Shown piece after piece: positions 426 to 9,447 of a stretch of DNA of 30,524 bases. The translations under genes were made by a program, and so were the position numbers. The DNA is from a virus, in the IMG/VR virus record IMGVR_UViG_3300037587_000181, positions 1 to 30,524 of that record; one strand, 5' to 3'. The stretch's first letter is position 1; each line of letters starts with the position of its first letter. The notes under the pieces are model-generated. The model had not been told where the DNA came from and did not search any database. It was given only the letters and a program-made list of their open reading frames with translations.

Positions 426-497
426 AGGTCGGTGGTGTAATGGATAGCATACCTGGCTCCAATCCAGGTGATATGAGTTCGAATCTTGTCCGTCCTG
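426..497 (+). tRNA. tRNA-Trp (CCA anticodon)
   Basis: Anticodon stem CCTGG/CCAGG with loop CTCCAAT gives anticodon CCA (codon UGG). The T arm ATGAG/CTTGT carries loop TTCGAAT. The acceptor is AGGTCGG/CCGTCCT with one mismatch, G73, and an encoded CCA tail at 498-500. Confidence 0.93.
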
Positions 498-646
498 CCA
501 AGCCTACGCTTGAAGATTTTGGTATAGTATATCTCAAGATGGTTTTAGGTTGGGATTGGGATAAGGTGGCAAGCTATACTAAACAAGGATGCCAGGAATT
601 AAAGCCCATTTATGAAAAAACATTACGCTACGTGATGGGGCTATAG
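473..646 (+). CDS. possible small ORF between tRNA-Trp and tRNA-Met
   Basis: An open frame ends with TAG at 644-646, whose last base is the first base of tRNA-Met. The part outside the tRNA encodes a sensible amphipathic sequence with several Trp and Tyr residues (Gly-Trp-Asp-Trp-Asp motif). The start is unclear. ATG 473 lies inside the tRNA-Trp T arm, with AGGTGA just upstream, and would give 57 residues. ATG 539 lacks a binding site and would give 35. The spacer is larger than elsewhere in the array, which favours a real gene, but the evidence is weak. Confidence 0.4.
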   Translation: MSSNLVRPAKPTLEDFGIVYLKMVLGWDWDKVASYTKQGCQELKPIYEKTLRYVMGL

Positions 647-721
647 GTTGCGATTGGGGAGGTAAGGTATCTCACTGGCCTCATAAGCCAGAGAAAGCGA
701 GTTCAATTCTCGTCGTCGCTA
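646..721 (+). tRNA. tRNA-Met (CAT anticodon)
   Basis: Anticodon stem CTGGC/GCCAG with loop CTCATAA gives CAT. The T arm is GCGAG/CTCGT with loop TTCAATT. A73 is followed by encoded CCA at 722-724. The first acceptor pair is G-U rather than the unpaired 1:72 of bacterial initiators, so an elongator is more likely. An Ile2 (lysidine) tRNA cannot be excluded, but a TAT-anticodon Ile tRNA is present at 1999. Confidence 0.9.
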
Positions 722-738
722 CCAATAGCCCTTCCAGA

Positions 739-810
739 GCGGGATAAGTGTTGCTGGTGGCATTCCAGCCTTCCAAGCTGAGGGGACGGGTTCGAGACCC
801 GTATTCCGCT
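739..810 (+). tRNA. tRNA-Gly (TCC)
   Basis: Acceptor GCGGGAT/ATTCCGC is fully paired, and the T arm is ACGGG/CCCGT. Anticodon loop CTTCCAA gives TCC (codon GGA). No CCA is encoded. Five further bases pair beyond the acceptor (CCAGA 734-738 with TCTGG 810-814), so the precursor has a 12 bp stem. Confidence 0.9.
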
Positions 811-814
811 CTGG

Positions 815-833
815 GTACACACACTGTGTGTAC
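815..833. repeat. 9 bp perfect inverted repeat in a tRNA spacer
   Basis: GTACACACA, one C, then TGTGTGTAC form a perfect palindrome around a single base, filling most of the 28 nt spacer between tRNA-Gly and tRNA-Thr. As RNA it could form an 8 bp hairpin with a three-base loop, perhaps a processing signal; as DNA it could be a protein-binding site. Neither is demonstrated. Confidence 0.7.
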
Positions 834-838
834 ATTGA

Positions 839-912
839 GCCAGTGTGGTGTTAATGGACAAGCATGTCGGTTTTGTACTCCGAAGGTGAGGGTTCAATTC
901 CTTCCATTGGCT
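839..912 (+). tRNA. tRNA-Thr (TGT)
   Basis: Acceptor GCCAGTG/CATTGGC and T arm GAGGG/CCTTC with loop TTCAATT are well paired. Anticodon loop TTTGTAC gives TGT (codon ACA). CCA is encoded at 913-915. Confidence 0.9.
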
Positions 913-919
913 CCATTCG

Positions 920-991
920 AGGGGAGATGATGTAGCAGTCGCATAGCAGGCTGTGAACCTGCCAGGACAGGTGCAACTCCTGTACTTCCCT
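920..991 (+). tRNA. tRNA-His (GTG)
   Basis: Anticodon stem GCAGG/CCTGC with loop CTGTGAA gives GTG (codon CAC). The T arm is ACAGG/CCTGT with loop TGCAACT. The extra 5' base is A920 opposite T991, instead of the usual G-1:C73 pair of bacterial tRNA-His. CCA is encoded at 992-994. Confidence 0.9.
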
Positions 992-1005
992 CCAAAGGAA
1001 AACAA

Positions 1006-1236
1006 ATGGCTAATAAAAAAGACTGTAAAGAAATAATTGCTGGAGAACCTGTAATTAAGCCCCAAAAACTCGCTGTTCTTGAGGTTTGTTGTGATTGTGG
1101 GCTTAACCATCTTACGTTTTATCGTATTGAGAATATTAAGGGAAAACGTACGGTTATACAGACATCTTACAGAGATACCTACGAAACCCAGAAGAGTAGG
1201 AAGGCATTTTCCTACTCCCATAAAGTGGCCCGATAG
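1006..1236 (+). CDS. small Cys-cluster protein, unknown
   Basis: This 76-residue ORF has a binding site (AAAGGAAAA) just upstream of ATG. Residues 28-35 form a Cys-Cys-Asp-Cys-Gly-Leu-Asn-His cluster that could bind a metal, though no second half-site is evident. The rest is basic. The stop TAG (1234-1236) is exactly bases 8-10 of the downstream tRNA-Ala, so gene and tRNA overlap by 10 bp. No family is recognised. Confidence 0.7.
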   Translation: MANKKDCKEIIAGEPVIKPQKLAVLEVCCDCGLNHLTFYRIENIKGKRTVIQTSYRDTYETQKSRKAFSYSHKVAR

Positions 1237-1299
1237 CTTAATTGGGAAAGCGACTGTCTTGCAAGCAGTTAGATACGAGTTCGACTCTCGTTCGGCCCA
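1227..1299 (+). tRNA. tRNA-Ala (TGC)
   Basis: Anticodon stem ACTGT/GCAGT with loop CTTGCAA gives TGC (codon GCA). The T arm is ACGAG/CTCGT. The acceptor GGCCCGA/TCGGCCC pairs except for a C3-C70 mismatch, at the position where bacterial tRNA-Ala carries its G3-U70 identity pair. No CCA is encoded. The complementarity continues three bases beyond the ends (AGT with ACT). Confidence 0.88.
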
Positions 1300-1305
1300 C
1301 TATGT

Positions 1306-1379
1306 GGACGGGTAGGCCAATCGGTAGAACCAACTGGTTTAAGTCCAGTAAAGTAAGAGTTCGAATCTCTTCCCGTCTA
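1306..1379 (+). tRNA. tRNA-Leu-type anticodon (TAA) with short variable arm
   Basis: Anticodon stem ACTGG/CCAGT is perfect around loop TTTAAGT, giving TAA (Leu codon UUA). The T stem AAGAG/CTCTT is perfect and the acceptor is GGACGGG/CCCGTCT with A73. Only five bases (AAAGT) separate the anticodon and T stems, so the long variable arm typical of bacterial tRNA-Leu is missing. Which synthetase charges it is an open question. Confidence 0.88.
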
Positions 1380-1388
1380 GGAGAATAG

Positions 1389-1544
1389 ATGAATGACCCA
1401 AAGATAGACAAAAAGAAATCAAGATGCTGTAAGGCAAGGGTCGAGTTGTCTACCCAAAATAAACCCACTGAGAGACCTGGGCATTTCCACTTTAAGTGTA
1501 CTGCCTGTGAGACAGACCCTTGCCTCATCATATTGGAGGTATAG
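1389..1544 (+). CDS. small putative zinc-binding protein
   Basis: This 51-residue ORF begins at ATG 1389 behind AGGAGA. Cysteines at 13, 14, 37, 40 and 45 with histidines at 32 and 34 include a Cys-x-x-Cys pair, so a small metal-binding fold is plausible. Its TAG stop (1542-1544) is bases 8-10 of the following tRNA-Lys, the same arrangement as the gene ending at 1236. No function is known. Confidence 0.65.
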   Translation: MNDPKIDKKKSRCCKARVELSTQNKPTERPGHFHFKCTACETDPCLIILEV

Positions 1545-1605
1545 CTTAGTGGTAAAGCCGTGGGCTTTTAACCCATTGACTGGGGTTCGATTCCCCGTGC
1601 CTCTA
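1535..1605 (+). tRNA. tRNA-Lys (TTT)
   Basis: Anticodon stem GTGGG/CCCAT with loop CTTTTAA gives TTT (codon AAA). The T arm has loop TTCGATT. The acceptor is GGAGGTA/TGCCTCT with G-U pairs, then A73. No CCA is encoded. Confidence 0.92.
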
Positions 1606-1607
1606 CT

Positions 1608-1678
1608 GGGCGCTTAGTGAAAAGGTATAACACCTGTTTTACACGCAGAAGTTGGTAGTTCAACTCTATCAGTGCCCA
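1608..1678 (+). tRNA. tRNA-Val (TAC)
   Basis: Acceptor GGGCGCT/AGTGCCC pairs throughout (one G-U), and the T arm is GGTAG/CTATC. Anticodon loop TTTACAC gives TAC (codon GUA). A73; no CCA is encoded. Confidence 0.9.
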
Positions 1679-1682
1679 TTAG

Positions 1683-1755
1683 GGGCAGGTAGCTTAATGG
1701 TTAAAGCGTTGCGCTGTTAACGCAGAAGATGGTAGTTCGAGTCTATCCCTGTTCG
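1683..1755 (+). tRNA. tRNA-Asn (GTT)
   Basis: Anticodon loop CTGTTAA gives GTT (codon AAC). The T arm is GGTAG/CTATC with loop TTCGAGT, and the acceptor is GGGCAGG/CCTGTTC. G73 is followed by encoded CCA at 1756-1758. Confidence 0.92.
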
Positions 1756-1770
1756 CCACATTCCCGTAAA

Positions 1771-1842
1771 GGGGGTATCGTCTACTGGCAAGGATAGTGG
1801 GTTTTCATCCCGCAGACACGGGTTCAATTCTCGTTGCCCCTT
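1771..1842 (+). tRNA. tRNA-Glu (TTC)
   Basis: Anticodon stem GTGGG/CCCGC with loop TTTTCAT gives TTC (codon GAA). The T arm is ACGGG/CTCGT and the acceptor GGGGGTA/TGCCCCT. No CCA is encoded. Confidence 0.9.
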
Positions 1843-1846
1843 CTAC

Positions 1847-1921
1847 GGGGGAGTAGCGTAGCCTGGACGACGCGCGTGACTTCTAATCACGTATACGTAG
1901 GTTCGAATCCTACCTTCCCTG
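1847..1921 (+). tRNA. tRNA-Arg (TCT)
   Basis: Anticodon stem CGTGA/TCACG with loop CTTCTAA gives TCT (codon AGA). The T arm GTAGG/CCTAC is perfect; acceptor GGGGGAG/CTTCCCT. It ends one base before the next tRNA. Confidence 0.92.
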
Positions 1922-1922
1922 C

Positions 1923-1996
1923 GAAGGGTTAGTATAATCTGGATAGAATACAAGGCTACGAACCTTGAGATGCAGGTTCGAGTCCTGTGCCCTTCG
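1923..1996 (+). tRNA. tRNA-Arg (ACG)
   Basis: Anticodon stem CAAGG/CCTTG with loop CTACGAA gives ACG (codons CGU/CGC/CGA if A34 becomes inosine). The acceptor is GAAGGGT/GCCCTTC and the T arm GCAGG/CCTGT. No CCA is encoded. Confidence 0.92.
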
Positions 1997-1998
1997 CA

Positions 1999-2069
1999 GG
2001 TGGGGTAGTTTAACGGTAGAACAGGCAACTTATAATTGTCAGATAGGAGTTCAATTCTCTTCCTCACTA
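1999..2069 (+). tRNA. tRNA-Ile (TAT)
   Basis: Anticodon stem GGCAA/TTGTC with loop CTTATAA gives TAT (codon AUA). The T arm is AGGAG/CTCTT and the acceptor GGTGGGG/CCTCACT. A directly AUA-reading tRNA avoids the need for lysidine modification. Confidence 0.9.
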
Positions 2070-2073
2070 TAAT

Positions 2074-2144
2074 GGCGGGGTAGTTCAAAGGCAGAACAGT
2101 GGGTCGATAACCCTCAGATGGAGGTTCGAATCCTCTCTTCGCTA
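2074..2144 (+). tRNA. tRNA-Ile (GAT)
   Basis: The T arm GGAGG/CCTCT with loop TTCGAAT and the acceptor GGCGGGG/CTTCGCT are clear, with A73 and encoded CCA at 2145-2147. The anticodon loop is best read as TCGATAA, giving GAT (codon AUC) but with C at position 33 in place of the near-invariant U. The anticodon stem has one mismatch. Confidence 0.82.
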
Positions 2145-2157
2145 CCAAGGAGACACC

Positions 2158-2322
2158 ATGAAGTTAAATTTTTACAATATATGGAAAGGTAATCCTACAT
2201 GGCACTTCACCCTGGTCGATGCCTTTGTAGTTCTTAAGGGTTGCCCGAGTCTTGATATTACGATATTAAATCTTACCATCTCTCTCGAATGGGGGAAATG
2301 GACAAAGAAGTTGGGACGGTAG
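2158..2322 (+). CDS. small Trp-rich protein, unknown
   Basis: A 54-residue ORF with AAGGAGA ideally placed before ATG. It contains five Trp residues, a His-Phe-Thr-Leu segment and a Lys-rich C-terminus. The stop TAG (2320-2322) is bases 8-10 of tRNA-Phe, the third such case in this array. No signal peptide or clear membrane helix. No family recognised. Confidence 0.65.
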   Translation: MKLNFYNIWKGNPTWHFTLVDAFVVLKGCPSLDITILNLTISLEWGKWTKKLGR

Positions 2323-2385
2323 CTCAGGCAGTAGAGCGGGTGCCTGAAGAGCACCGCGTCGCAGGTGCAATTCCTGCCCTTCCCA
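2313..2385 (+). tRNA. tRNA-Phe (GAA)
   Basis: Anticodon stem GGTGC/GCACC with loop CTGAAGA gives GAA (codon UUC). T arm GCAGG/CCTGC with loop TGCAATT; acceptor GGGACGG/CCTTCCC with one mismatch. It ends one base before tRNA-Pro. Confidence 0.92.
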
Positions 2386-2386
2386 T

Positions 2387-2460
2387 TGGGAATTAGTGTT
2401 AGCGGACGAGCACGGTGGTTTTGGGAACCATCAGGGTCAGTTCGAATCTGACATTCCCAA
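2387..2460 (+). tRNA. tRNA-Pro (TGG)
   Basis: Acceptor TGGGAAT/ATTCCCA and T arm GTCAG/CTGAC are perfect. Anticodon loop TTTGGGA gives TGG (codon CCA). Complementarity continues outward (CAT with ATG), partly into the neighbouring tRNAs, so processing of the precursor must resolve competing pairings. Confidence 0.9.
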
Positions 2461-2461
2461 T

Positions 2462-2546
2462 GGGTAGGTATGCAAACGGTGAAGCGCGCTGGCTGTAAAC
2501 CAGCCCCCACGTGGTAAACCTGCAGGTTCGAATCCTGCCCTACCCT
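2462..2546 (+). tRNA. tRNA-Tyr (GTA), long variable arm
   Basis: Anticodon stem GCTGG/CCAGC with loop CTGTAAA gives GTA (codon UAC). It has the normal class II long variable arm for bacterial Tyr, which contrasts with the Leu-anticodon tRNA at 1306. Acceptor GGGTAGG/CCTACCC and T arm GCAGG/CCTGC are perfect. Confidence 0.93.
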
Positions 2547-2556
2547 CTTACCCAAT

Positions 2557-2629
2557 AGCCCTTTAGCCCAATGGTTAAGGCGCTGGGCTTTGAACCCAGA
2601 GATTCATGGTTCGACTCCATGGGGGGCTG
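2557..2629 (+). tRNA. tRNA-Gln (TTG)
   Basis: Anticodon stem CTGGG/CCCAG with loop CTTTGAA gives TTG (codon CAA). The T arm CATGG/CCATG is perfect and the acceptor is AGCCCTT/GGGGGCT. It is flanked by a further 7 bp of complementarity (TTACCCA 2548-2554 with TGGGTAA 2631-2637). Last tRNA of the main array. Confidence 0.92.
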
Positions 2630-2646
2630 CTGGGTAAAGATTTTAC

Positions 2647-2675
2647 TTGACAAACTCAACTAAATGTGGTATACT
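2647..2675 (+). promoter_or_regulatory. sigma70-type promoter with extended -10
   Basis: A perfect -35 TTGACA (2647-2652), a 17 bp spacer and a -10 TATACT (2670-2675) preceded by TGG (extended -10) lie just after the tRNA array. Transcription should start near 2682, a few bases before the ribosome binding site of the gene at 2698. It is the only near-consensus promoter noticed and probably drives the small-gene and structural operon using host RNA polymerase. Confidence 0.85.
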
Positions 2676-2697
2676 ATAAATAGAGGCATACATTATC

Positions 2698-2937
2698 GTG
2701 GATGATTTGAGACGAAGTTGCACAAAATGCCACGGTACAATCTACTATGACTACGCAGCAACCGACAAACCAAACTCCTGGCTCACTTGTCCCTATTGCG
2801 CGTATGAGAACTGGGTTGGTAAGGGACGAAATCCTAATGCTCATCGTGCGTTTACGAGAGAATGGTGGGCTGCCAAAAGGCGTAAAGCCAGACGAAGACT
2901 GGGGAAACCACCCCGCAATGGGATGGTATCTACGTAG
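2698..2937 (+). CDS. zinc-ribbon protein
   Basis: This 79-residue protein starts at GTG 2698, preceded by AGAGG at suitable spacing; no in-frame ATG precedes the zinc motif. Cys8-x2-Cys11 and Cys31-x2-Cys34 form two knuckles 19 residues apart, a classic zinc-ribbon layout. The C-terminal 30 residues are Arg/Lys-rich. Zinc ribbons of this type often bind nucleic acid or act as adaptors, so a regulatory role for the first gene behind the promoter is plausible but unproven. The last 101 bases overlap another good frame at 2837. Confidence 0.65.
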   Translation: MDDLRRSCTKCHGTIYYDYAATDKPNSWLTCPYCAYENWVGKGRNPNAHRAFTREWWAAKRRKARRRLGKPPRNGMVST

Positions 2938-3010
2938 TACACAGTGTGCTGAGGAGACTTTTCATCCCGAACTTAGCCTGGTGGAATGTATTGAAGTCAT
3001 CGATGAATAA
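2837..3010 (+). CDS. small ORF overlapping the zinc-ribbon gene, unknown
   Basis: A 57-residue frame starts at ATG 2837 (AAGGGA at 2820-2825) and ends TAATG into the next gene. Its sequence looks protein-like, with a Pro-Asp-Glu-Asp-Trp-Gly segment and an acidic C-terminus, and codes alone beyond 2937. The frame remains open upstream to ATG 2747. The overlap with the zinc-ribbon gene may be true dual coding, or the two frames may be joined by a +1 frameshift. No family recognised. Confidence 0.6.
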   Translation: MLIVRLRENGGLPKGVKPDEDWGNHPAMGWYLRSTQCAEETFHPELSLVECIEVIDE

Positions 3011-3138
3011 TGCCTAAGAAATTAAAACGAAAACTCAAGAAAAAGGCTAAAGCCAAAGGACTCAGTAAAAAGCGTACGGGTGCTTATGTATATGGGACAC
3101 TACGAAAAACAGGGTGGAAGCCAAAGGGTGAAAAATAA
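3010..3138 (+). CDS. tiny lysine-rich basic protein
   Basis: This 42-residue ORF overlaps both neighbours by one base (TAATG at each end), which supports coupled translation. The first 21 residues are about half Lys/Arg. The C-terminal part contains Tyr-Gly-Thr-Leu-Arg-Lys-Thr-Gly-Trp. Its size and charge suggest nucleic-acid binding or an internal virion peptide. Function is not established. Confidence 0.6.
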   Translation: MPKKLKRKLKKKAKAKGLSKKRTGAYVYGTLRKTGWKPKGEK

Positions 3139-3428
3139 TGGCTAGTATTGCATCAAGGGCTTCTACTATGGTTAAGGGCCAAGAGAAGAGAATTAAAGAG
3201 AAGCAAGCATTAAAGCGTGCCCGAGAAATGACAAAGAAGTGGGCTGCTGAGGATGCTGCAAAAAAGAAGAAACCCAAATCTAAACCAAAGAAAGCATTAC
3301 CCAAGGCAACTGACGCTGGAGGCACAGCCTTAGAAGAAGGTCGCAGAATGGGTATCTATAAGAAAAAAAAGAAAAAGAAGTCCCAGAGTAAAGTTACACA
3401 ACCTGGGGGTTCTTGGTATAAACCGTGA
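3138..3428 (+). CDS. lysine-rich basic protein
   Basis: A 96-residue protein with an Ala/Arg/Lys-rich, probably helical N-terminal half and two runs of lysine (around residues 42-52 and 75-80); the second is encoded by an A-rich tract at 3360-3380. No membrane segment. It is coupled to the preceding gene by TAATG and overlaps the next by four bases (GTGA). Such proteins often neutralise packaged DNA or RNA. The A-tract is a possible slippage site, but no better alternative frame is visible. Confidence 0.65.
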   Translation: MASIASRASTMVKGQEKRIKEKQALKRAREMTKKWAAEDAAKKKKPKSKPKKALPKATDAGGTALEEGRRMGIYKKKKKKKSQSKVTQPGGSWYKP

Positions 3429-3715
3429 AGAAATTCATTTGTATCGTAGCGTTGCTTTTGTTCCTGTCTAGTTGTATAGTTGTAGATAGTCGGTATATTC
3501 GCATGAGGCGCGCGATGGTGCGTCCCGTGTATGTTCCATATTATGGGTTGTTTTATACTCCGCATAATTACTACGGATACGAGTATTGGTATGGAAACTA
3601 TGCTGTAAATTATCCAAGTTACACTAAAGCAATAAAGAGGACTGTGACAAAACAACAACTTGCTGCTCCGAAATCAACCAAATCAGGAAAGAAGACTAAA
3701 GTTAAAAATAGATAA
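3425..3715 (+). CDS. Tyr-rich lipoprotein
   Basis: Starting at GTG 3425, this 96-residue protein begins Met-Lys-Lys, then a hydrophobic core and a lipobox Leu14-Ser15-Ser16-Cys17, so it should be exported and lipidated. The mature middle is strikingly Tyr-rich, and the C-terminus is Lys-rich. Phage lipoproteins of this size are often involved in superinfection exclusion or lysis (outer spanins), but this one is far from the lysis genes, so its role is open. The TAA stop abuts tRNA-Cys directly. Confidence 0.75.
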   Translation: MKKFICIVALLLFLSSCIVVDSRYIRMRRAMVRPVYVPYYGLFYTPHNYYGYEYWYGNYAVNYPSYTKAIKRTVTKQQLAAPKSTKSGKKTKVKNR

Positions 3716-3789
3716 CTTGGGGTGAGTGACACTGGTTTAGCTACCTGGCTGCAACCCAGGCAATAGCGGTTCGATTCCGCTCCCCAAGT
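3716..3789 (+). tRNA. tRNA-Cys (GCA)
   Basis: Acceptor CTTGGGG/CCCCAAG, anticodon stem CCTGG/CCAGG and T stem AGCGG/CCGCT are all perfect. Anticodon loop CTGCAAC gives GCA. CCA is encoded at 3790-3792 and also serves as part of the extended tRNA-Asp precursor stem. Confidence 0.92.
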
Positions 3790-3794
3790 CCAGC

Positions 3795-3868
3795 AGAGTC
3801 GAGGTCGAAATGGAGGAGACACCTGGTTGTCAGCCAGGAGAAAGCGGGTTCAACTCCCGTCGGTTCTG
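3795..3868 (+). tRNA. tRNA-Asp (GTC)
   Basis: Anticodon stem CCTGG/CCAGG with loop TTGTCAG gives GTC (codon GAC). T arm GCGGG/CCCGT; acceptor AGAGTCG/CGGTTCT; G73. The base at position 8 reads A rather than U. Five outside pairs (CCAGC 3790-3794 with GCTGG 3868-3872) extend the acceptor to a 12 bp stem. Confidence 0.88.
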
Positions 3869-4026
3869 CTGGATTTGAATATAAGAGATGCCGTAGAGAT
3901 GAGTTACTTCGACAACTATGGTTATCATTTTGGATGAGGCAATATGATTATTGCGAGAAATCCAAACCGCCCTGGCAAGCACTAGGGCACTCTCATTTCG
4001 CCTGTCGCTCTCTTAATATATAACAT
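3869..4026 (+). other. intergenic leader with hairpins, no gene seen
   Basis: No convincing gene occupies this gap. It holds a perfect hairpin GCAATA-TGAT-TATTGC (3939-3954) and a GCCCT/AGGGC stem-loop around 3969-3989. GGATTT (3871-3876) is complementary to AAATCC (3959-3964), so the first half could close into one larger fold. No U-tract terminator is seen. A regulatory RNA or processing region is possible. Confidence 0.45.
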
Positions 4027-4170
4027 ATGGAAAGTATTATCCGCACGGACTTTGATAAGTCCATAAACAGAGACCTCCTGAAAGGGGGCAAGTCTGTCTC
4101 AAGGAAAAGGAATGCCCGTAGGAAGCAAAAAGTTAAAAACATCGACGTTAAAAAAGGCAAAAGTTTCTAA
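4027..4170 (+). CDS. small ORF carrying the capsid N-terminal peptide
   Basis: This 47-residue ORF (ATG 4027) lacks an obvious ribosome binding site and overlaps the portal start by 59 bases, but its residues 2-19 match residues 5-22 of the major capsid protein at 12 of 18 positions, with four conservative changes. Many codons differ synonymously between the copies, which argues that the peptide sequence is selected. The C-terminal half is Lys/Arg-rich. It may bind the same partner as the capsid N-terminus (scaffold, portal or DNA), but this is inference. The reading frame also contains a GGACTT-TGAT-AAGTCC hairpin (4047-4062). Confidence 0.6.
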   Translation: MESIIRTDFDKSINRDLLKGGKSVSRKRNARRKQKVKNIDVKKGKSF

Positions 4171-6178
4171 AAAAGAAGTCATAACTAAGCGCGATATGGA
4201 GGGCTTTAAGGGTTCTCTACCCCTGGACTTCAAGAAGGTCATGAAGTCTGGGAAGACACTCCGTGAAGAACTCTCTAAACATATTAATGAGGTCTTAACT
4301 CAGGAGATAAAGAACCAGGCACCGCGTATTAAGAAGTTAAAAGAGTGGCAAGACCTGTATAAGGGCCATAGAGATGAGAGAACATGGCCTTTTCCACATT
4401 GCGCTAATACGACTTCACCCCTAACGCGGTCAAATACGGACGCGATTCACGTGAGAATCCACGATGCCCTCTTTAATAAGAGAAAATTCTGGATCATGAA
4501 GGCTAGTAAGCCCGAGGCAGTGGGAATTGATCGTGAAATCGAAGATTATCTTGACTGGTTCCAGCGAAACATCCTAAAAATGCGCACCAAGTTACAATCT
4601 CCGTTACTTCAGTGCGTAAAAACGGGTACTGGCGTAATAAAACTCGGATGGGAGTCAAAGAAACGGACATCCTATAGGTACGCCACAAAGGAAGAGATAG
4701 CAGATAAGGAAGTTACAACCTACAAGCTCCCTGGAAGTAAGACTCCTGGTGTTAAGTATGTTCATACTGAGTACGAAGGGCCACAAATCTATGGTATCCC
4801 GAGAGAAGACTGGATAATCTCCTCAGATGCAAAATCTGTACAGGATGCGTACTTGTGCGGGTTTAAGTTTACTCTTCGAAAACCAGAGATCGACCTTCGT
4901 GTTAGACAGGGGATATTTTATAAAGAGCAGGCGGATAAGTTGATTGCTCCAGATAAAACAGACCCTGTTAAAGAAGGTCGCGCAGAGGCTCAGCATAAGA
5001 AAATAGAGTACGTTGATGCAACCAAGCCGTTTGAAATCTGGGAGCTATGGACTAGCTTCGATGTGGATGAAGACGGGGAAGAGGACGATATTGTCCTAAC
5101 ATTGCATAAAGAAACTGAGACACTTCTTAACGGAATCTACAACCCGCTATTTATTGGGTTTAAACCGTTTGTACCCCTGGTGTTTTATCCTCACGAATAC
5201 TGTGTAGACGGGGAGGGAATAGCAGAGATACTTGAGAGCATCCAGTATGAGATTGATTCGTTGCATAACCAGAAAATTGATAGACTTACACAGATTAACA
5301 ACCCCGTGATATTCATTAAGGAGGGTAGTAACCTGGAGGGTCTTGAGTATCTGGAACCAGGGAAAGTATATGTTTCTGACATGGATTTAGATAGGGCCAT
5401 CAAGGAGTTTAGATGGTCTGATACTACGTATGCCATCGACAAGGAAGAGGCTATGCTGATGTCTCAGGGAGATAGGGCTGTTGGTATTACGCCTAATGTT
5501 CTTGGAATCTCGACTGCTGAGAGACCAGTAGCGAAAGAGACATTTGCGAATATCCAAGAGGCGAATAAGAAGTTCCAACACGGTATTGCGAATCTTCGTC
5601 TCGGGCTGGCCGAGATTGCATTTATGATTATTGAATTTTATGCCCAGTACCAGCCAACATATAAATACACTACTCAGACTGGGGCGCCTCTTAAAGACGG
5701 TGCTGAGCCTGAGTGGGAAGTCAAGAAGGTTAACTTTCCTATCCACATTATTCGGGATGGGCTAGAAGTAGAACTCTTTGCTTCCACAGAATTACTGAAC
5801 CAAGAGGTTCGACGTGAAGTGAATATCGCTGTGTATCAGATGCTCAGTGATTTCTATACAAAAACGGCAGGCATGGTAGAAGCGCTCCTAAGCAATGAAG
5901 TGCCAAAAGAGTTTAAGAAGTTCTTGCTTAGCATTATGAAGAAGGGTGACGAGCGTATTGAGAAAGTACTCGAAGACTTTGACCAGGCTGATTCAGAAAT
6001 GTACAGAGTGGATATTGAGAAGGTAATCGATGTTGAGAAAGCATTAAACATGCCACCGCCACCACCACCACAGGTTGATGAACAGGGGAACCCAATAGAA
6101 GAAGGAGGACAGAGTGCCAGACCAACCCCTAGAAGGAGTATGAAAACATTGCCAAGACTCAGTTCTGGGCAATACTAA
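4112..6178 (+). CDS. portal protein (head-tail connector)
   Basis: The 688-residue protein resembles portals of short-tailed phages: a helical N-terminal region, a mixed wing, and around residues 365-395 the stretch with Asp-Gly-Glu-Gly-Ile-Ala-Glu leading into a long helix, typical of P22-like and related portals. It would form the dodecameric DNA gate at one capsid vertex, docking TerL and the adaptor. The start ATG follows AAGGAAAAGG. The first 22 residues are Lys-rich, and a run of six prolines lies near residue 650 before a flexible tail. Its position ahead of scaffold and capsid matches the standard order. Confidence 0.88.
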   Translation: MPVGSKKLKTSTLKKAKVSKKEVITKRDMEGFKGSLPLDFKKVMKSGKTLREELSKHINEVLTQEIKNQAPRIKKLKEWQDLYKGHRDERTWPFPHCANTTSPLTRSNTDAIHVRIHDALFNKRKFWIMKASKPEAVGIDREIEDYLDWFQRNILKMRTKLQSPLLQCVKTGTGVIKLGWESKKRTSYRYATKEEIADKEVTTYKLPGSKTPGVKYVHTEYEGPQIYGIPREDWIISSDAKSVQDAYLCGFKFTLRKPEIDLRVRQGIFYKEQADKLIAPDKTDPVKEGRAEAQHKKIEYVDATKPFEIWELWTSFDVDEDGEEDDIVLTLHKETETLLNGIYNPLFIGFKPFVPLVFYPHEYCVDGEGIAEILESIQYEIDSLHNQKIDRLTQINNPVIFIKEGSNLEGLEYLEPGKVYVSDMDLDRAIKEFRWSDTTYAIDKEEAMLMSQGDRAVGITPNVLGISTAERPVAKETFANIQEANKKFQHGIANLRLGLAEIAFMIIEFYAQYQPTYKYTTQTGAPLKDGAEPEWEVKKVNFPIHIIRDGLEVELFASTELLNQEVRREVNIAVYQMLSDFYTKTAGMVEALLSNEVPKEFKKFLLSIMKKGDERIEKVLEDFDQADSEMYRVDIEKVIDVEKALNMPPPPPPQVDEQGNPIEEGGQSARPTPRRSMKTLPRLSSGQY

Positions 6179-6378
6179 GTCAAGAGGTTGAGAAGAGAAT
6201 AAAGACCTACTCAGAAGGACTTGAGGATGCGGAACTGTCGCTTCATTCTCACCTTGCTTCAAAAGACCAGGGCAGGATTGATTCTCTTAGGTGGATAGTA
6301 AGAGTAATAAAAGATATTAGAGACGGGAAAATCTCTTTAAAGACCCCGTTGAAAAGTATTGGAGGTTTAAATGTCTGA
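6148..6378 (+). CDS. small conserved-looking protein between portal and scaffold, ATT start
   Basis: A frame closed upstream by TAG (6130-6132) codes for about 76 residues and overlaps both neighbours. It has no ATG, GTG or TTG at its beginning; AAGGAG (6133-6138) lies nine bases before ATT 6148, which I take as the start (Met-Ala-Lys-Thr-Gln-Phe-Trp). The product is helical and charged, with a Gln-Gly-Arg-Ile-x-x-Leu-Arg-Trp motif that I associate from memory with small proteins at this place in other podoviral genomes. Alternatively it could be made by -1 frameshifting at the portal 3' end. The role may be assembly, but is unknown. Confidence 0.6.
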   Translation: MAKTQFWAILSQEVEKRIKTYSEGLEDAELSLHSHLASKDQGRIDSLRWIVRVIKDIRDGKISLKTPLKSIGGLNV

Positions 6379-7300
6379 TTTCGTAGAGGGGAGGACTTTC
6401 CACGATGCAAAACCTGAAGACATGTCTGTTATCACTGACCCTGATGTCAGAAAGAAACTAGGTTTGCGGGAAGCCCCCAAGAAAGATGATGACGCGACCC
6501 CTAAAGACGACGGTACTAAGAAGGATGATGATTTAAAGATTCCTGAAAAGTACGAGGGAAAATCGCAAGAAGACCTGCTAAAGATTTTAGTTGACCGAGA
6601 CAAAAGTTTCGGAGAACAGGGTACTCGCCTTAAGAAGGTAGAGGACGACCTGGAGTTCAACAAGAGAATAGCAGAGCTTAATCGTCGAGATGCTCCCGCA
6701 CCAGTAAAAACGGATACGGAGCCTGTGCTCAAGCCTGAGATGCCTGAGTACAAAGATGACGACTTTATATCATTTAAAGACGTTAAAAAGCTAGTTGGTA
6801 GTGCAATACAAGAAGACAGGAAAGTGACACAAACAGTTAGTCAAGAGAAGCTGCTCAATATGATTGGCATTGCTCACGATGAGGGAATGAAATCCCTCAA
6901 AGGGAAGAAAGTTGCCGAGGGGATTGAACAGGAAACTTCGATGGCTATGTTTGAGCATTTTAAACCATTGGTTGAAAAAGGTTACGATGTTTCTTCTTAT
7001 CTAAGAGACCCTGCTCAATGGGAGAAGGCTGCGCGTAGCGTACGCTTTCGACGTGAAGAGTATGACTATCTCACAGAAGGTAAGAAAGAAGACAAGAAAC
7101 CAGAGGAAGATATCAGCCCAATGGCCCCTATTAAAGGGGAAGCGCCTGGAGGACGTGGTGCACCATCATATGGTGAAGAACCTATTCGGTTAACCGAACA
7201 TAATAAAGGTATTATGGAGCGGTTTGATTTATCGGAAGATGAAACTGAAAAGGGACTGCGGGAAATCCGAGACGCTCGTCGTAGAGGAGAAGCAGTATAA
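6371..7300 (+). CDS. capsid scaffolding protein
   Basis: This 309-residue protein is highly charged, with long Lys/Asp/Glu-rich and probably coiled-coil or disordered stretches, a Pro/Ala-rich linker near residues 108-125, no cysteine and no enzymatic motif. Size, composition and position between portal and capsid gene fit a scaffolding protein that guides procapsid assembly and is then lost. The Met-Ser-Asp start is preceded by GGAGG. Recognition is by composition and context rather than a sequence signature. Confidence 0.7.
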   Translation: MSDFVEGRTFHDAKPEDMSVITDPDVRKKLGLREAPKKDDDATPKDDGTKKDDDLKIPEKYEGKSQEDLLKILVDRDKSFGEQGTRLKKVEDDLEFNKRIAELNRRDAPAPVKTDTEPVLKPEMPEYKDDDFISFKDVKKLVGSAIQEDRKVTQTVSQEKLLNMIGIAHDEGMKSLKGKKVAEGIEQETSMAMFEHFKPLVEKGYDVSSYLRDPAQWEKAARSVRFRREEYDYLTEGKKEDKKPEEDISPMAPIKGEAPGGRGAPSYGEEPIRLTEHNKGIMERFDLSEDETEKGLREIRDARRRGEAV

Positions 7301-8023: not shown

Positions 8024-8045
8024 ATGACGGACGTTGGTCTGTCAT
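8024..8045 (+). promoter_or_regulatory. 9 bp stem-loop in decoration-gene leader
   Basis: ATGACGGAC and GTCTGTCAT pair over nine positions (one G-U) around loop GTTG, ending 21 bases before the decoration gene's ATG. A T-rich tract lies upstream rather than downstream, so it is not a + strand terminator. An mRNA processing or stabilising structure is more likely. Confidence 0.6.
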
Positions 8046-8066
8046 ACTAATTACGGAGGAAATCAA

Positions 8067-8507
8067 ATGGGATTTCAATTAATAGAGGGCCCACCTAATA
8101 TTGTTTATTTTCAACAATCTGGGTCTTCAGCAACAGAATTCTATGTTGGCGACCCCGTGATATTCTCTAGTGGCAAAATCATAATTGCCACCTCTGGTGC
8201 GAATGTTTTAGGAATTTCTGCCAAACAGGCAACGGGTACAGCTAATACCTGGCTTCCTATTCATTTACTTTCACTAGAGCAAATTTGGAGTATTGCTGTT
8301 GACGGCGCAACTACACCTGCTATCGCTTCCCACGTGGGAGTGAACTATGACCTCACAATTTCTGCTGGGGTTACGGTTCTTAATGTAGCTGGTACAACTG
8401 CTGCTGGTTGGTACGTTCTCGGTCTTGACGGACGAGACGTTCCTGCTGCTGGTACACGAGTTCTCGTGAAGCCAGAGTCTGACACAATACTACCGTTTGG
8501 AGACTAA
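8067..8507 (+). CDS. capsid decoration-like protein
   Basis: This 146-residue protein starts at ATG 8067 behind ACGGAGGAA; an upstream extension of the frame would run through the hairpin and lacks a binding site. It is beta-rich, with many Gly, Ala, Thr and Val residues, few charges, and no cysteine or membrane segment. Placement immediately before the major capsid gene is typical of head-decoration or stabilising proteins that bind the expanded capsid. No specific family motif seen; the call is mostly contextual. Confidence 0.65.
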   Translation: MGFQLIEGPPNIVYFQQSGSSATEFYVGDPVIFSSGKIIIATSGANVLGISAKQATGTANTWLPIHLLSLEQIWSIAVDGATTPAIASHVGVNYDLTISAGVTVLNVAGTTAAGWYVLGLDGRDVPAAGTRVLVKPESDTILPFGD

Positions 8508-8508
8508 C

Positions 8509-9447
8509 ATGGCTAATGTTGACAGCATAATGAGGACAGACTGGGATACCAGTACAAACAGGGATATCCTGAAACTTGGTCTACGTAAACTTTTTGACAA
8601 CACGCAAAGAGAAGCGGTTGTCGAATATCCTATTGTTGTTAATGACTTAACAACTAAGGAATACTACGAAAGAGACCAGCAAATCGCAGGGTTAAGCTTA
8701 GCTCAACCCGTACGCGAGGGTCAGAATATTCCTATTCAAGCACCACCATTCGGTGAAAGCGTTACATACACACAAACTGGATTCGGAACTGGGTTCCGTA
8801 TCACACACATGATGGACTACTTTAACAAGTACAAACTTCTGAATAGATGGACATCAGACCTTGGCAAAGTTCAAAAAGAAACTAAGGACATTGAGATTGC
8901 TAAAATGTTCAATAGTCCTACGGTATCTACCTACGGTGGAACTGGTTTCGACAGCCAGGTTCTTGCGTACGCTACTCATACTGGACTTGCATCTGGAACT
9001 GGCGACAACTACAATAACTACGCTAACGCAGGACTTTCAATCACAGCACTTGAAGACATGAGATACTACTTCACCACACTTGTGGATGACTTAGGTATGT
9101 ACATGGGTGCTGTACCAACAATTCTCGCAATCGAACCTTCACTGTACTTCACAGCTAAAGAGATTCTTGGCTCAGAGGGTAAAGCTCACGAGATGAGCAA
9201 TACCATCAACGTTCTAAAAGAACTTAATCTGACCTGTTTTGAATACCACAGGCTGACAAGTACTACTGCATGGTTCGTTGAAGCGAAGAGTGACAAAAAC
9301 TTCGACATCAATGTTATGACATCTATGAATCCAACATTCTGGACAAAAGATGCTCCTGACATGACGAAGGACACAATCGTGTTCTCACTCCAATACTTCA
9401 CATACGGCTTTGGAGACCCAAGAACGTATTATTGCGGTAACACCTAA
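8509..9447 (+). CDS. major capsid protein, HK97 fold
   Basis: The 312-residue protein has the length, composition and context of an HK97-fold capsid protein: an N-terminal charged arm, a loop with Pro and Gly residues, a spine-helix region, and a C-terminal A-domain-like beta segment with Phe-Thr-Tyr-Gly-Phe-Gly-Asp-Pro near the end. ATG 8509 is preferred over an in-frame TTG at 8497 because TGGAGA lies just before it. Residues 5-22 recur in the small ORF at 4027. No long protease-removed N-terminal domain is evident, consistent with a separate scaffold gene. Confidence 0.85.
   Translation: MANVDSIMRTDWDTSTNRDILKLGLRKLFDNTQREAVVEYPIVVNDLTTKEYYERDQQIAGLSLAQPVREGQNIPIQAPPFGESVTYTQTGFGTGFRITHMMDYFNKYKLLNRWTSDLGKVQKETKDIEIAKMFNSPTVSTYGGTGFDSQVLAYATHTGLASGTGDNYNNYANAGLSITALEDMRYYFTTLVDDLGMYMGAVPTILAIEPSLYFTAKEILGSEGKAHEMSNTINVLKELNLTCFEYHRLTSTTAWFVEAKSDKNFDINVMTSMNPTFWTKDAPDMTKDTIVFSLQYFTYGFGDPRTYYCGNT

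What the first reader, a model, noticed from the sequence alone, without database searches (positions are those of the whole stretch)
4027..4170. Capsid N-terminal peptide reused in a separate 47-residue ORF
Residues 2-19 of this small ORF match residues 5-22 of the major capsid protein (8509-9447) at 12 of 18 positions, plus Glu/Asp, Ile/Met, Phe/Trp and Leu/Ile swaps. Shared amino acids often use different codons (Ser, Ile, Arg, Thr, Asp), which points to selection on the peptide rather than a recent DNA copy. The rest of the ORF is basic and overlaps the portal start. It may be a targeting or scaffold-binding tag, a decoy that regulates capsid assembly, or a mini-protein that carries cargo into the head.
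Basis: partly seen in the sequence, partly recalled or inferred. Interest (0 to 1): 0.78.

Follow-up and report, generated by a model that had tools for sequence, protein, structure and literature searches.

The report
Small protein copying capsid's N-terminal arm
Many environmental phages carry, just before their portal gene, a tiny protein whose front end imitates the flexible N-terminal arm of that same phage's capsid protein and whose back end is a strongly positive tail, which suggests a previously undescribed helper that plugs into capsid assembly, probably at the portal.

Summary
ORF 4027-4170 repeats the N-arm of the major capsid protein (MCP): 12 of 18 identical, E 2e-7, and the best-scoring pair among 195 window ORFs. 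It is not a relic. A profile built only from MCP N-termini of related IMG/VR phages finds separate short ORFs of this kind directly 5' of the portal gene, and a blind motif scan of IMG/VR found more in the same place. There are about 18 distinct members, all with a Lys/Arg-rich tail; none matches a known family. Each small protein resembles its own phage's MCP N-arm (10.3/18) more than other phages' (6.5/18; permutation p about 1e-5), yet identical residues use the same codon no more often than codon usage predicts (55 of 141; 62 expected). So selection acts on the peptide in step with the cognate MCP. The gene is often missing, including in the window's sister lineage (L005 absent, L006 degenerate), so it is an accessory. 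In other phages the N-arm is the scaffold-binding helix of the procapsid and an inter-capsomer strap. I infer that the small protein acts as an N-arm in trans during head assembly, made with the portal, tethering a polybasic tail. Expression and binding are untested.

The parts
4027..4170 (+). small N-arm-mimic gene, 47 aa (P0001)
   Evidence: homologous small ORFs 5' of portal in about 17 other distinct phages
4027..4089 (+). MCP-N-arm-like segment MESIIRTDFDKSINRDLLKGG
   Evidence: profile of MCP N-termini alone hits it with E 3.9e-6 in six-frame ORFs of all loci
4090..4167 (+). Lys/Arg-rich tail (net charge +12 over residues 19-47)
   Evidence: tail sequence varies but charge is kept in all members
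4101..4111 (+). AAGGAAAAGGA, Shine-Dalgarno-like stretch for portal, inside the small ORF
   Evidence: read; not tested
4112..6178 (+). portal protein gene, start overlaps the small ORF in +1 frame
   Evidence: PHROG 1216 portal E 2.6e-30, Pfam SU10_portal E 1.9e-26
6371..7300 (+). probable scaffold protein gene (309 aa, net -12)
   Evidence: no family hit; all-helical model with C-terminal helix-turn-helix 276-285/289-304; acidic in all relatives
8034..8507 (+). small head protein directly before MCP (decoration-like by position; function inferred)
   Evidence: conserved place and size, 140-182 aa, in relatives; no family hit
8509..9447 (+). major capsid protein
   Evidence: Pfam Phage_capsid_4 E 1.2e-5 (just under its cut-off); relatives match PHROG major head protein; HK97 fold: top PDB match 1ohg E 3.3e-12
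8518..8580 (+). MCP N-arm segment (residues 4-24) copied by the small protein
   Evidence: free extended arm in the model, residues 1-11 pLDDT < 50
3795..3869 (+). tRNA-Asp, last gene before the small ORF

Best explanation
The ORF is a real small gene of a widespread, undescribed family. Its product is an autonomous copy of the N-terminal arm of the phage's own HK97-fold capsid protein joined to a polybasic, probably disordered tail, and its reading frame usually overlaps or abuts that of the portal. SHOWN by sequence: the family exists beside the portal, its arm sequence tracks the cognate MCP arm residue by residue, the coding DNA is not recently copied, the tail is always basic, and the gene can be lost. 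INFERRED: because the peptide must stay like the MCP arm of the same virus, it binds whatever the arm binds, namely the C-terminal hook of the acidic scaffold protein in the procapsid and/or the arm groove of a neighbouring MCP. Most likely it is recruited to the nascent portal or scaffold complex as it is translated. There it occupies scaffold hooks or arm sites that have no MCP arm because the portal replaces a penton, while its basic tail contacts acidic scaffold or the first DNA to enter. This would help to nucleate or seal the portal vertex.
For: A profile from MCP N-termini only finds separate small ORFs just 5' of portal. L057, L053 and L055 were found out of sample. A blind motif scan of IMG/VR (pattern FDx[S/T]PNKD) gave nine stretches: two known members and L065-L068, again beside the portal where it is held on the contig; the other three are chance matches. 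Cognate identity is 10.3/18 against 6.5/18 non-cognate, p about 1e-5, also within GC classes; 12 of 15 match their own MCP best. Shared oddities: L030 NAIRTGIDACQYNVLMK/NAIRTGFDNSTYNVLMK; L066 VGTWFDKSPNKDLFKK/VGTWFDTSTNKDIFKK. Same codon at 55 of 141 identical residues, 62.3 expected. A family-wide signature differs from MCP: the residue after DxS is T in 14/15 MCPs and in 0/15 small proteins, Fisher p 2e-7. The tail is basic in all, also where no overlap with portal forces it (L008, L053, L010: 70-92% K/R). The MCP model is HK97 fold with a free N-arm. The neighbouring gene is acidic and all-helical with a C-terminal helix-turn-helix. Literature: the N-arm is the scaffold-binding helix in SPP1, P22 and 80alpha; P22 scaffold hooks contact both N-arm and portal electrostatically; the arm rearranges at the JBD30 portal vertex (PMC6813328, PMC9965877, PMC5644958, PMC12005531, PMC11445458).
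Against: No expression, proteomic or binding data exist. The gene is absent from whole available records of several relatives, is missing in L005 and degenerate in L006, the closest lineage to the window, so it is not essential everywhere. The window copy lacks a clear Shine-Dalgarno. In L010 and L025 another gene lies between it and the portal, so obligate coupling to portal is not general. The scaffold identity rests on position, charge and a model. The site of action (scaffold hook, MCP groove or portal vertex) is not distinguished by the data.
Confidence: 0.6

Rival explanations
1. Capsid-targeted internal protein: the arm mimic is a targeting tag that puts the polybasic tail inside the head, where many copies neutralise or condense packaged DNA or are ejected with it, like the T4 internal proteins with capsid targeting sequences.
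For: Tail always basic, up to 92% K/R; in L025 the tag sits in frame on a different basic small protein, as a modular tag would. T4 IPIII needs only its first 10 residues for head targeting (PMC9026906).
Against: Tails are very short (mostly 15-35 residues); frequent loss; placing beside the portal suggests low copy number; no prohead protease recognised between portal and MCP, so the tag would not be removed.
Confidence: 0.2
2. Assembly regulator or decoy: the free arm competes with MCP for scaffold and so delays shell growth or titrates scaffold until the portal is made; or it titrates a host sensor or satellite protein that recognises the MCP arm.
For: Same peptide-level tracking of the cognate MCP; SaPI1 CpmB shows that competing partners at the scaffold-MCP interface can redirect assembly (PMC5644958); patchy presence fits an arms race.
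Against: Does not explain the conserved basic tail or the conserved place beside the portal; no defence or satellite gene was linked to it.
Confidence: 0.12
3. Relic: a captured or duplicated 5' fragment of an MCP gene without function.
For: Sister lineage lacks it or has it degenerate (L005, L006); no clear Shine-Dalgarno in the window.
Against: About 18 distinct members in the same place in phages whose MCPs are about 40-60% identical to the window's, cognate tracking, saturated synonymous sites with conserved peptide, family-wide signature and tail. Could still hold for the window copy alone.
Confidence: 0.05
4. Translational leader: the ORF only feeds ribosomes to the overlapping portal start and its peptide is irrelevant.
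For: Most members overlap or abut the portal start, in the window with the portal's ribosome site inside the ORF.
Against: A leader has no reason to keep the MCP arm sequence and track the cognate MCP while codons change; L010 and L025 are separated from portal by another gene.
Confidence: 0.03

Closest known systems
MCP N-arm of HK97-fold phages (SPP1 gp13, P22 gp5, 80alpha CP, JBD30)
   Same: Same sequence motif as the arm of the cognate MCP; predicted to use the same binding partners.
   Different: Here the arm is a separate protein without the capsid fold and with a polybasic tail.
T4 internal proteins IPI-IPIII with capsid targeting sequences
   Same: Small head proteins with a short N-terminal targeting peptide; T4 IPs are likewise not all essential.
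   Different: The T4 tag is a propeptide removed by gp21 and is not known (from memory) to copy the MCP arm; no protease was recognised here.
SaPI1 CpmB (competing internal scaffold)
   Same: A small protein acting at the scaffold-MCP interface.
   Different: CpmB binds MCP in place of the scaffold; this one imitates the MCP side of that interface and belongs to the phage itself.
SPP1 gp7 and other portal-associated minor head proteins (from memory, not tested)
   Same: Encoded near the portal and possibly acting at the portal vertex.
   Different: No sequence resemblance was tested; gp7 is far larger.

Membership tests
HK97-fold major capsid protein (is the small ORF an MCP or fragment of one?) | HK97 fold core after the N-arm | tested here: not met
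   Only residues 1-21 align to MCP; the rest is basic tail
HK97-fold major capsid protein (is the small ORF an MCP or fragment of one?) | N-arm sequence motif of the cognate MCP | tested here: met
   Profile hit E 3.9e-6; cognate permutation p about 1e-5
T4-type internal protein with capsid targeting sequence | N-terminal targeting peptide on a small basic head protein | tested here: inconclusive
   Architecture fits; incorporation into heads not testable here
T4-type internal protein with capsid targeting sequence | tag removed by a prohead protease | tested here: inconclusive
   No protease recognised among the genes from portal to MCP; cleavage not testable
Any Pfam, PHROG or PDB-represented family | profile or sequence match | tested here: not met
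   16 members scanned: PHROGs best E 0.11, Pfam best E 0.04, PDB none
Scaffold-binding peptide (works like MCP N-arm) | binds the C-terminal hook of the scaffold protein | not testable with these tools
   Needs binding assay or complex structure; partner candidate 6371-7300 identified

The most novel reading that the evidence does not exclude
Tailed phages use an N-arm in trans: a dedicated microprotein, co-translated with the portal and co-evolving with the capsid protein, fills the arm sites or scaffold hooks left empty where the portal replaces a penton, helping to solve the 12-fold/5-fold mismatch and to ensure one portal per head.
Probability: 0.3. Interest if true: 0.9.

Novelty: categorically new. 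Interest (0 to 1): 0.75.

Why it matters
How one and only one portal enters a procapsid, and how a 12-fold ring is fitted into a 5-fold vertex, are long-standing questions. A natural, minimal peptide that imitates the capsid arm, is encoded with the portal and co-varies with the cognate capsid protein would be a genetic handle on that step and a ready tool for steering or tagging capsid assembly. It also shows that microgenes below normal annotation size can be found by looking for copies of the termini of structural proteins.

Tried and rejected
Relic or recent duplication: rejected for the family by conservation and codon randomisation. RNA-level regulation through a shared mRNA site: rejected because synonymous positions are randomised. 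Programmed frameshift joining the small ORF to portal: rejected because the relative frame differs among members (+1 in the window, L026 and L028; -1 in L024 and L036) and other genes intervene in L010 and L025. Basic tail as a mere by-product of overlap with the Lys-rich portal start: rejected because L008, L053 and L010 have the tail without overlap. Annotated phages: distant MCP relatives GB2A and the Manatee Spring phage do not carry the arm motif; no annotated phage record held a close relative. Bacterial genome contigs gave no relatives. Seven literature searches, with several papers then read, showed no description of such a protein.

Full report
CHECK. The ORF and the match are as described. 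12 of 18 residues are identical (13/21 in BLASTP, E 2e-7). Among 195 ORFs of 40 aa or more in the window it is the best non-overlapping pair. At the 13 identical positions 5 codons agree, 5.7 being expected from the phage's codon usage.

SETTING. The window is a 30.5 kb IMG/VR virus record with a 21-tRNA array, then the small ORF, portal (SU10-type), an acidic protein, a 231-aa protein, a small head protein and the MCP. The MCP model (mean pLDDT 88) is HK97 fold (best PDB match 1ohg). Its first 38 residues form an extended arm that is free in the monomer and includes the copied segment. The 309-aa acidic protein is predicted all-helical with a C-terminal helix-turn-helix, as expected of a scaffold.

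RELATIVES. MCP and portal searches of IMG/VR gave several dozen related contigs. Their MCPs begin with variants of xxIRTxFDxSTNKDLLKxG. A profile of 30 MCP N-termini, without any small ORF, was run on the six-frame ORFs of all loci. Besides the MCPs it found separate short ORFs, all on the coding strand and just 5' of portal: L019 4.6e-8, window 3.9e-6, L024 1.2e-5, L008 3.7e-5, L026 7.6e-5, L007 1.3e-4, L057 3e-4, L055 5e-4, L053 7e-4, L029 0.002, L010, L028 and L036 0.008-0.009, and weaker L025 0.12 and L030 0.34. L035 and L020 have the same layout and were recognised by position first; they are less certain. A scan of the whole viral collection with a degenerate DNA pattern for the small-protein version (FDx[S/T]PNKD) returned nine stretches. 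Two were known members, four were further members (L065 is near L019; L066; L067 and L068 alike) beside a portal where it is held on the contig, and three were chance matches. That makes about 18 distinct members. None matches Pfam, PHROGs or PDB.

CO-VARIATION. Over 18 aligned columns each small protein matches its own phage's MCP arm at 10.3 positions on average and other phages' at 6.5. No permutation of 100,000 reached the observed value (p about 1e-5, the floor), also when shuffling only within GC classes. 12 of 15 have their own MCP as best match. L066/L067, found by motif only, are an out-of-sample example: small protein VGTWFDKSPNKDLFKK, own MCP VGTWFDTSTNKDIFKK. Yet over 14 pairs identical residues use the same codon 55 times of 141, against 62.3 expected if codons were drawn independently. 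The similarity is therefore kept at peptide level and not by recent gene conversion. If the two copies had simply diverged from one old duplication, cognate pairs would be no closer than others; so the two co-evolve, presumably through a shared partner, or were repeatedly re-derived long ago. Against many separate origins speaks a family signature: the residue after DxS is P, K, Q, I or A in the small proteins and T in 14 of 15 MCPs (Fisher p 2e-7), plus the constant place and basic tail (net +9 to +19). Caveats: the columns were anchored by hand, 15 pairs are not fully independent, and the permutation p is at its floor.

PRESENCE. On an MCP tree built without the arm, presence is scattered over both halves with at least six changes. 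The window's sister lineage lacks it (L005, where tRNA-Asp abuts portal) or has a shortened form (L006 MPSSTINTGFGKALLERPKRKRRR...). L056 has an HNH-like gene in its place, read. Whole available records of L006, L056, L059, L022, L021 and L040 contain only the MCP copy, though these may be fragments. It is an accessory gene.

MECHANISM. In SPP1, P22 and 80alpha the MCP N-arm is the helix bound by the scaffold in the procapsid; in SPP1, P22 and JBD30 it unfolds on maturation and reaches the neighbouring capsomer (PMC6813328, PMC9965877, PMC5644958, PMC11445458). In the P22 procapsid the scaffold hooks contact both N-arm and portal electrostatically (PMC12005531). In JBD30 arms next to the portal bend away (PMC11445458). 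A peptide that must stay like the cognate arm, made beside the portal and carrying a basic tail, is best explained as an N-arm in trans acting on scaffold hooks or arm grooves, most likely at the portal vertex. Alternatives are an internal DNA-binding protein with a capsid tag, or a regulator or decoy. Sequence data cannot decide between them.

VERDICT. Observation confirmed; peptide-level selection supported; a specific function is inferred only. I rate the kind as new because no described system known to me, or found in seven searches of the literature, uses a separate, co-evolving copy of the capsid arm. If it proves to be a targeting tag only, it would instead be a new variant of capsid-targeted internal proteins.

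Noticed in passing
window 426-3869: Array of 21 tRNA genes directly upstream of the structural genes; relative L005 has 23 in the same place, with tRNA-Asp abutting the portal gene.
   Followed up: partly
L025:9517-9750: The arm motif (MTVSTEYDTTPGKELLRGRN) is fused in frame to another small phage protein (SPFKSRKQMKWMFSAENRGEVKKG...), as if the arm were a portable tag.
   Followed up: partly
L056:5200-5859: A gene resembling an HNH endonuclease sits directly upstream of portal where relatives such as L008 have the small arm gene; identity by eye only.
   Followed up: no
L005:1318-1629: A zinc-ribbon-like ORF before the tRNA array contains THWDNISNKDLLVE, faintly like the arm motif (9.3 bits, E 1.4); could be chance or a relocated tag.
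   Followed up: no
L053:3370-3468 and L055:5397-5495: Two contigs 99.6% identical over 4.9 kb have 6 of their 20 differences inside the 99-base small gene, including K to P at the signature position.
   Followed up: partly
window 3010-3138: 42-aa basic ORF (MPKKLKRKLKKKAKAKGLSKKRTGAYVYGTLRKTGWKPKGEK) with evident relatives upstream of portal in L021, L035, L036 and L040; another conserved unannotated small protein.
   Followed up: no
L022, L024, L025, L059 upstream of portal: A small predicted membrane protein (LxREfLaIcwyxaI...G..iG.f.GvkF) recurs just upstream of the portal in several relatives.
   Followed up: no
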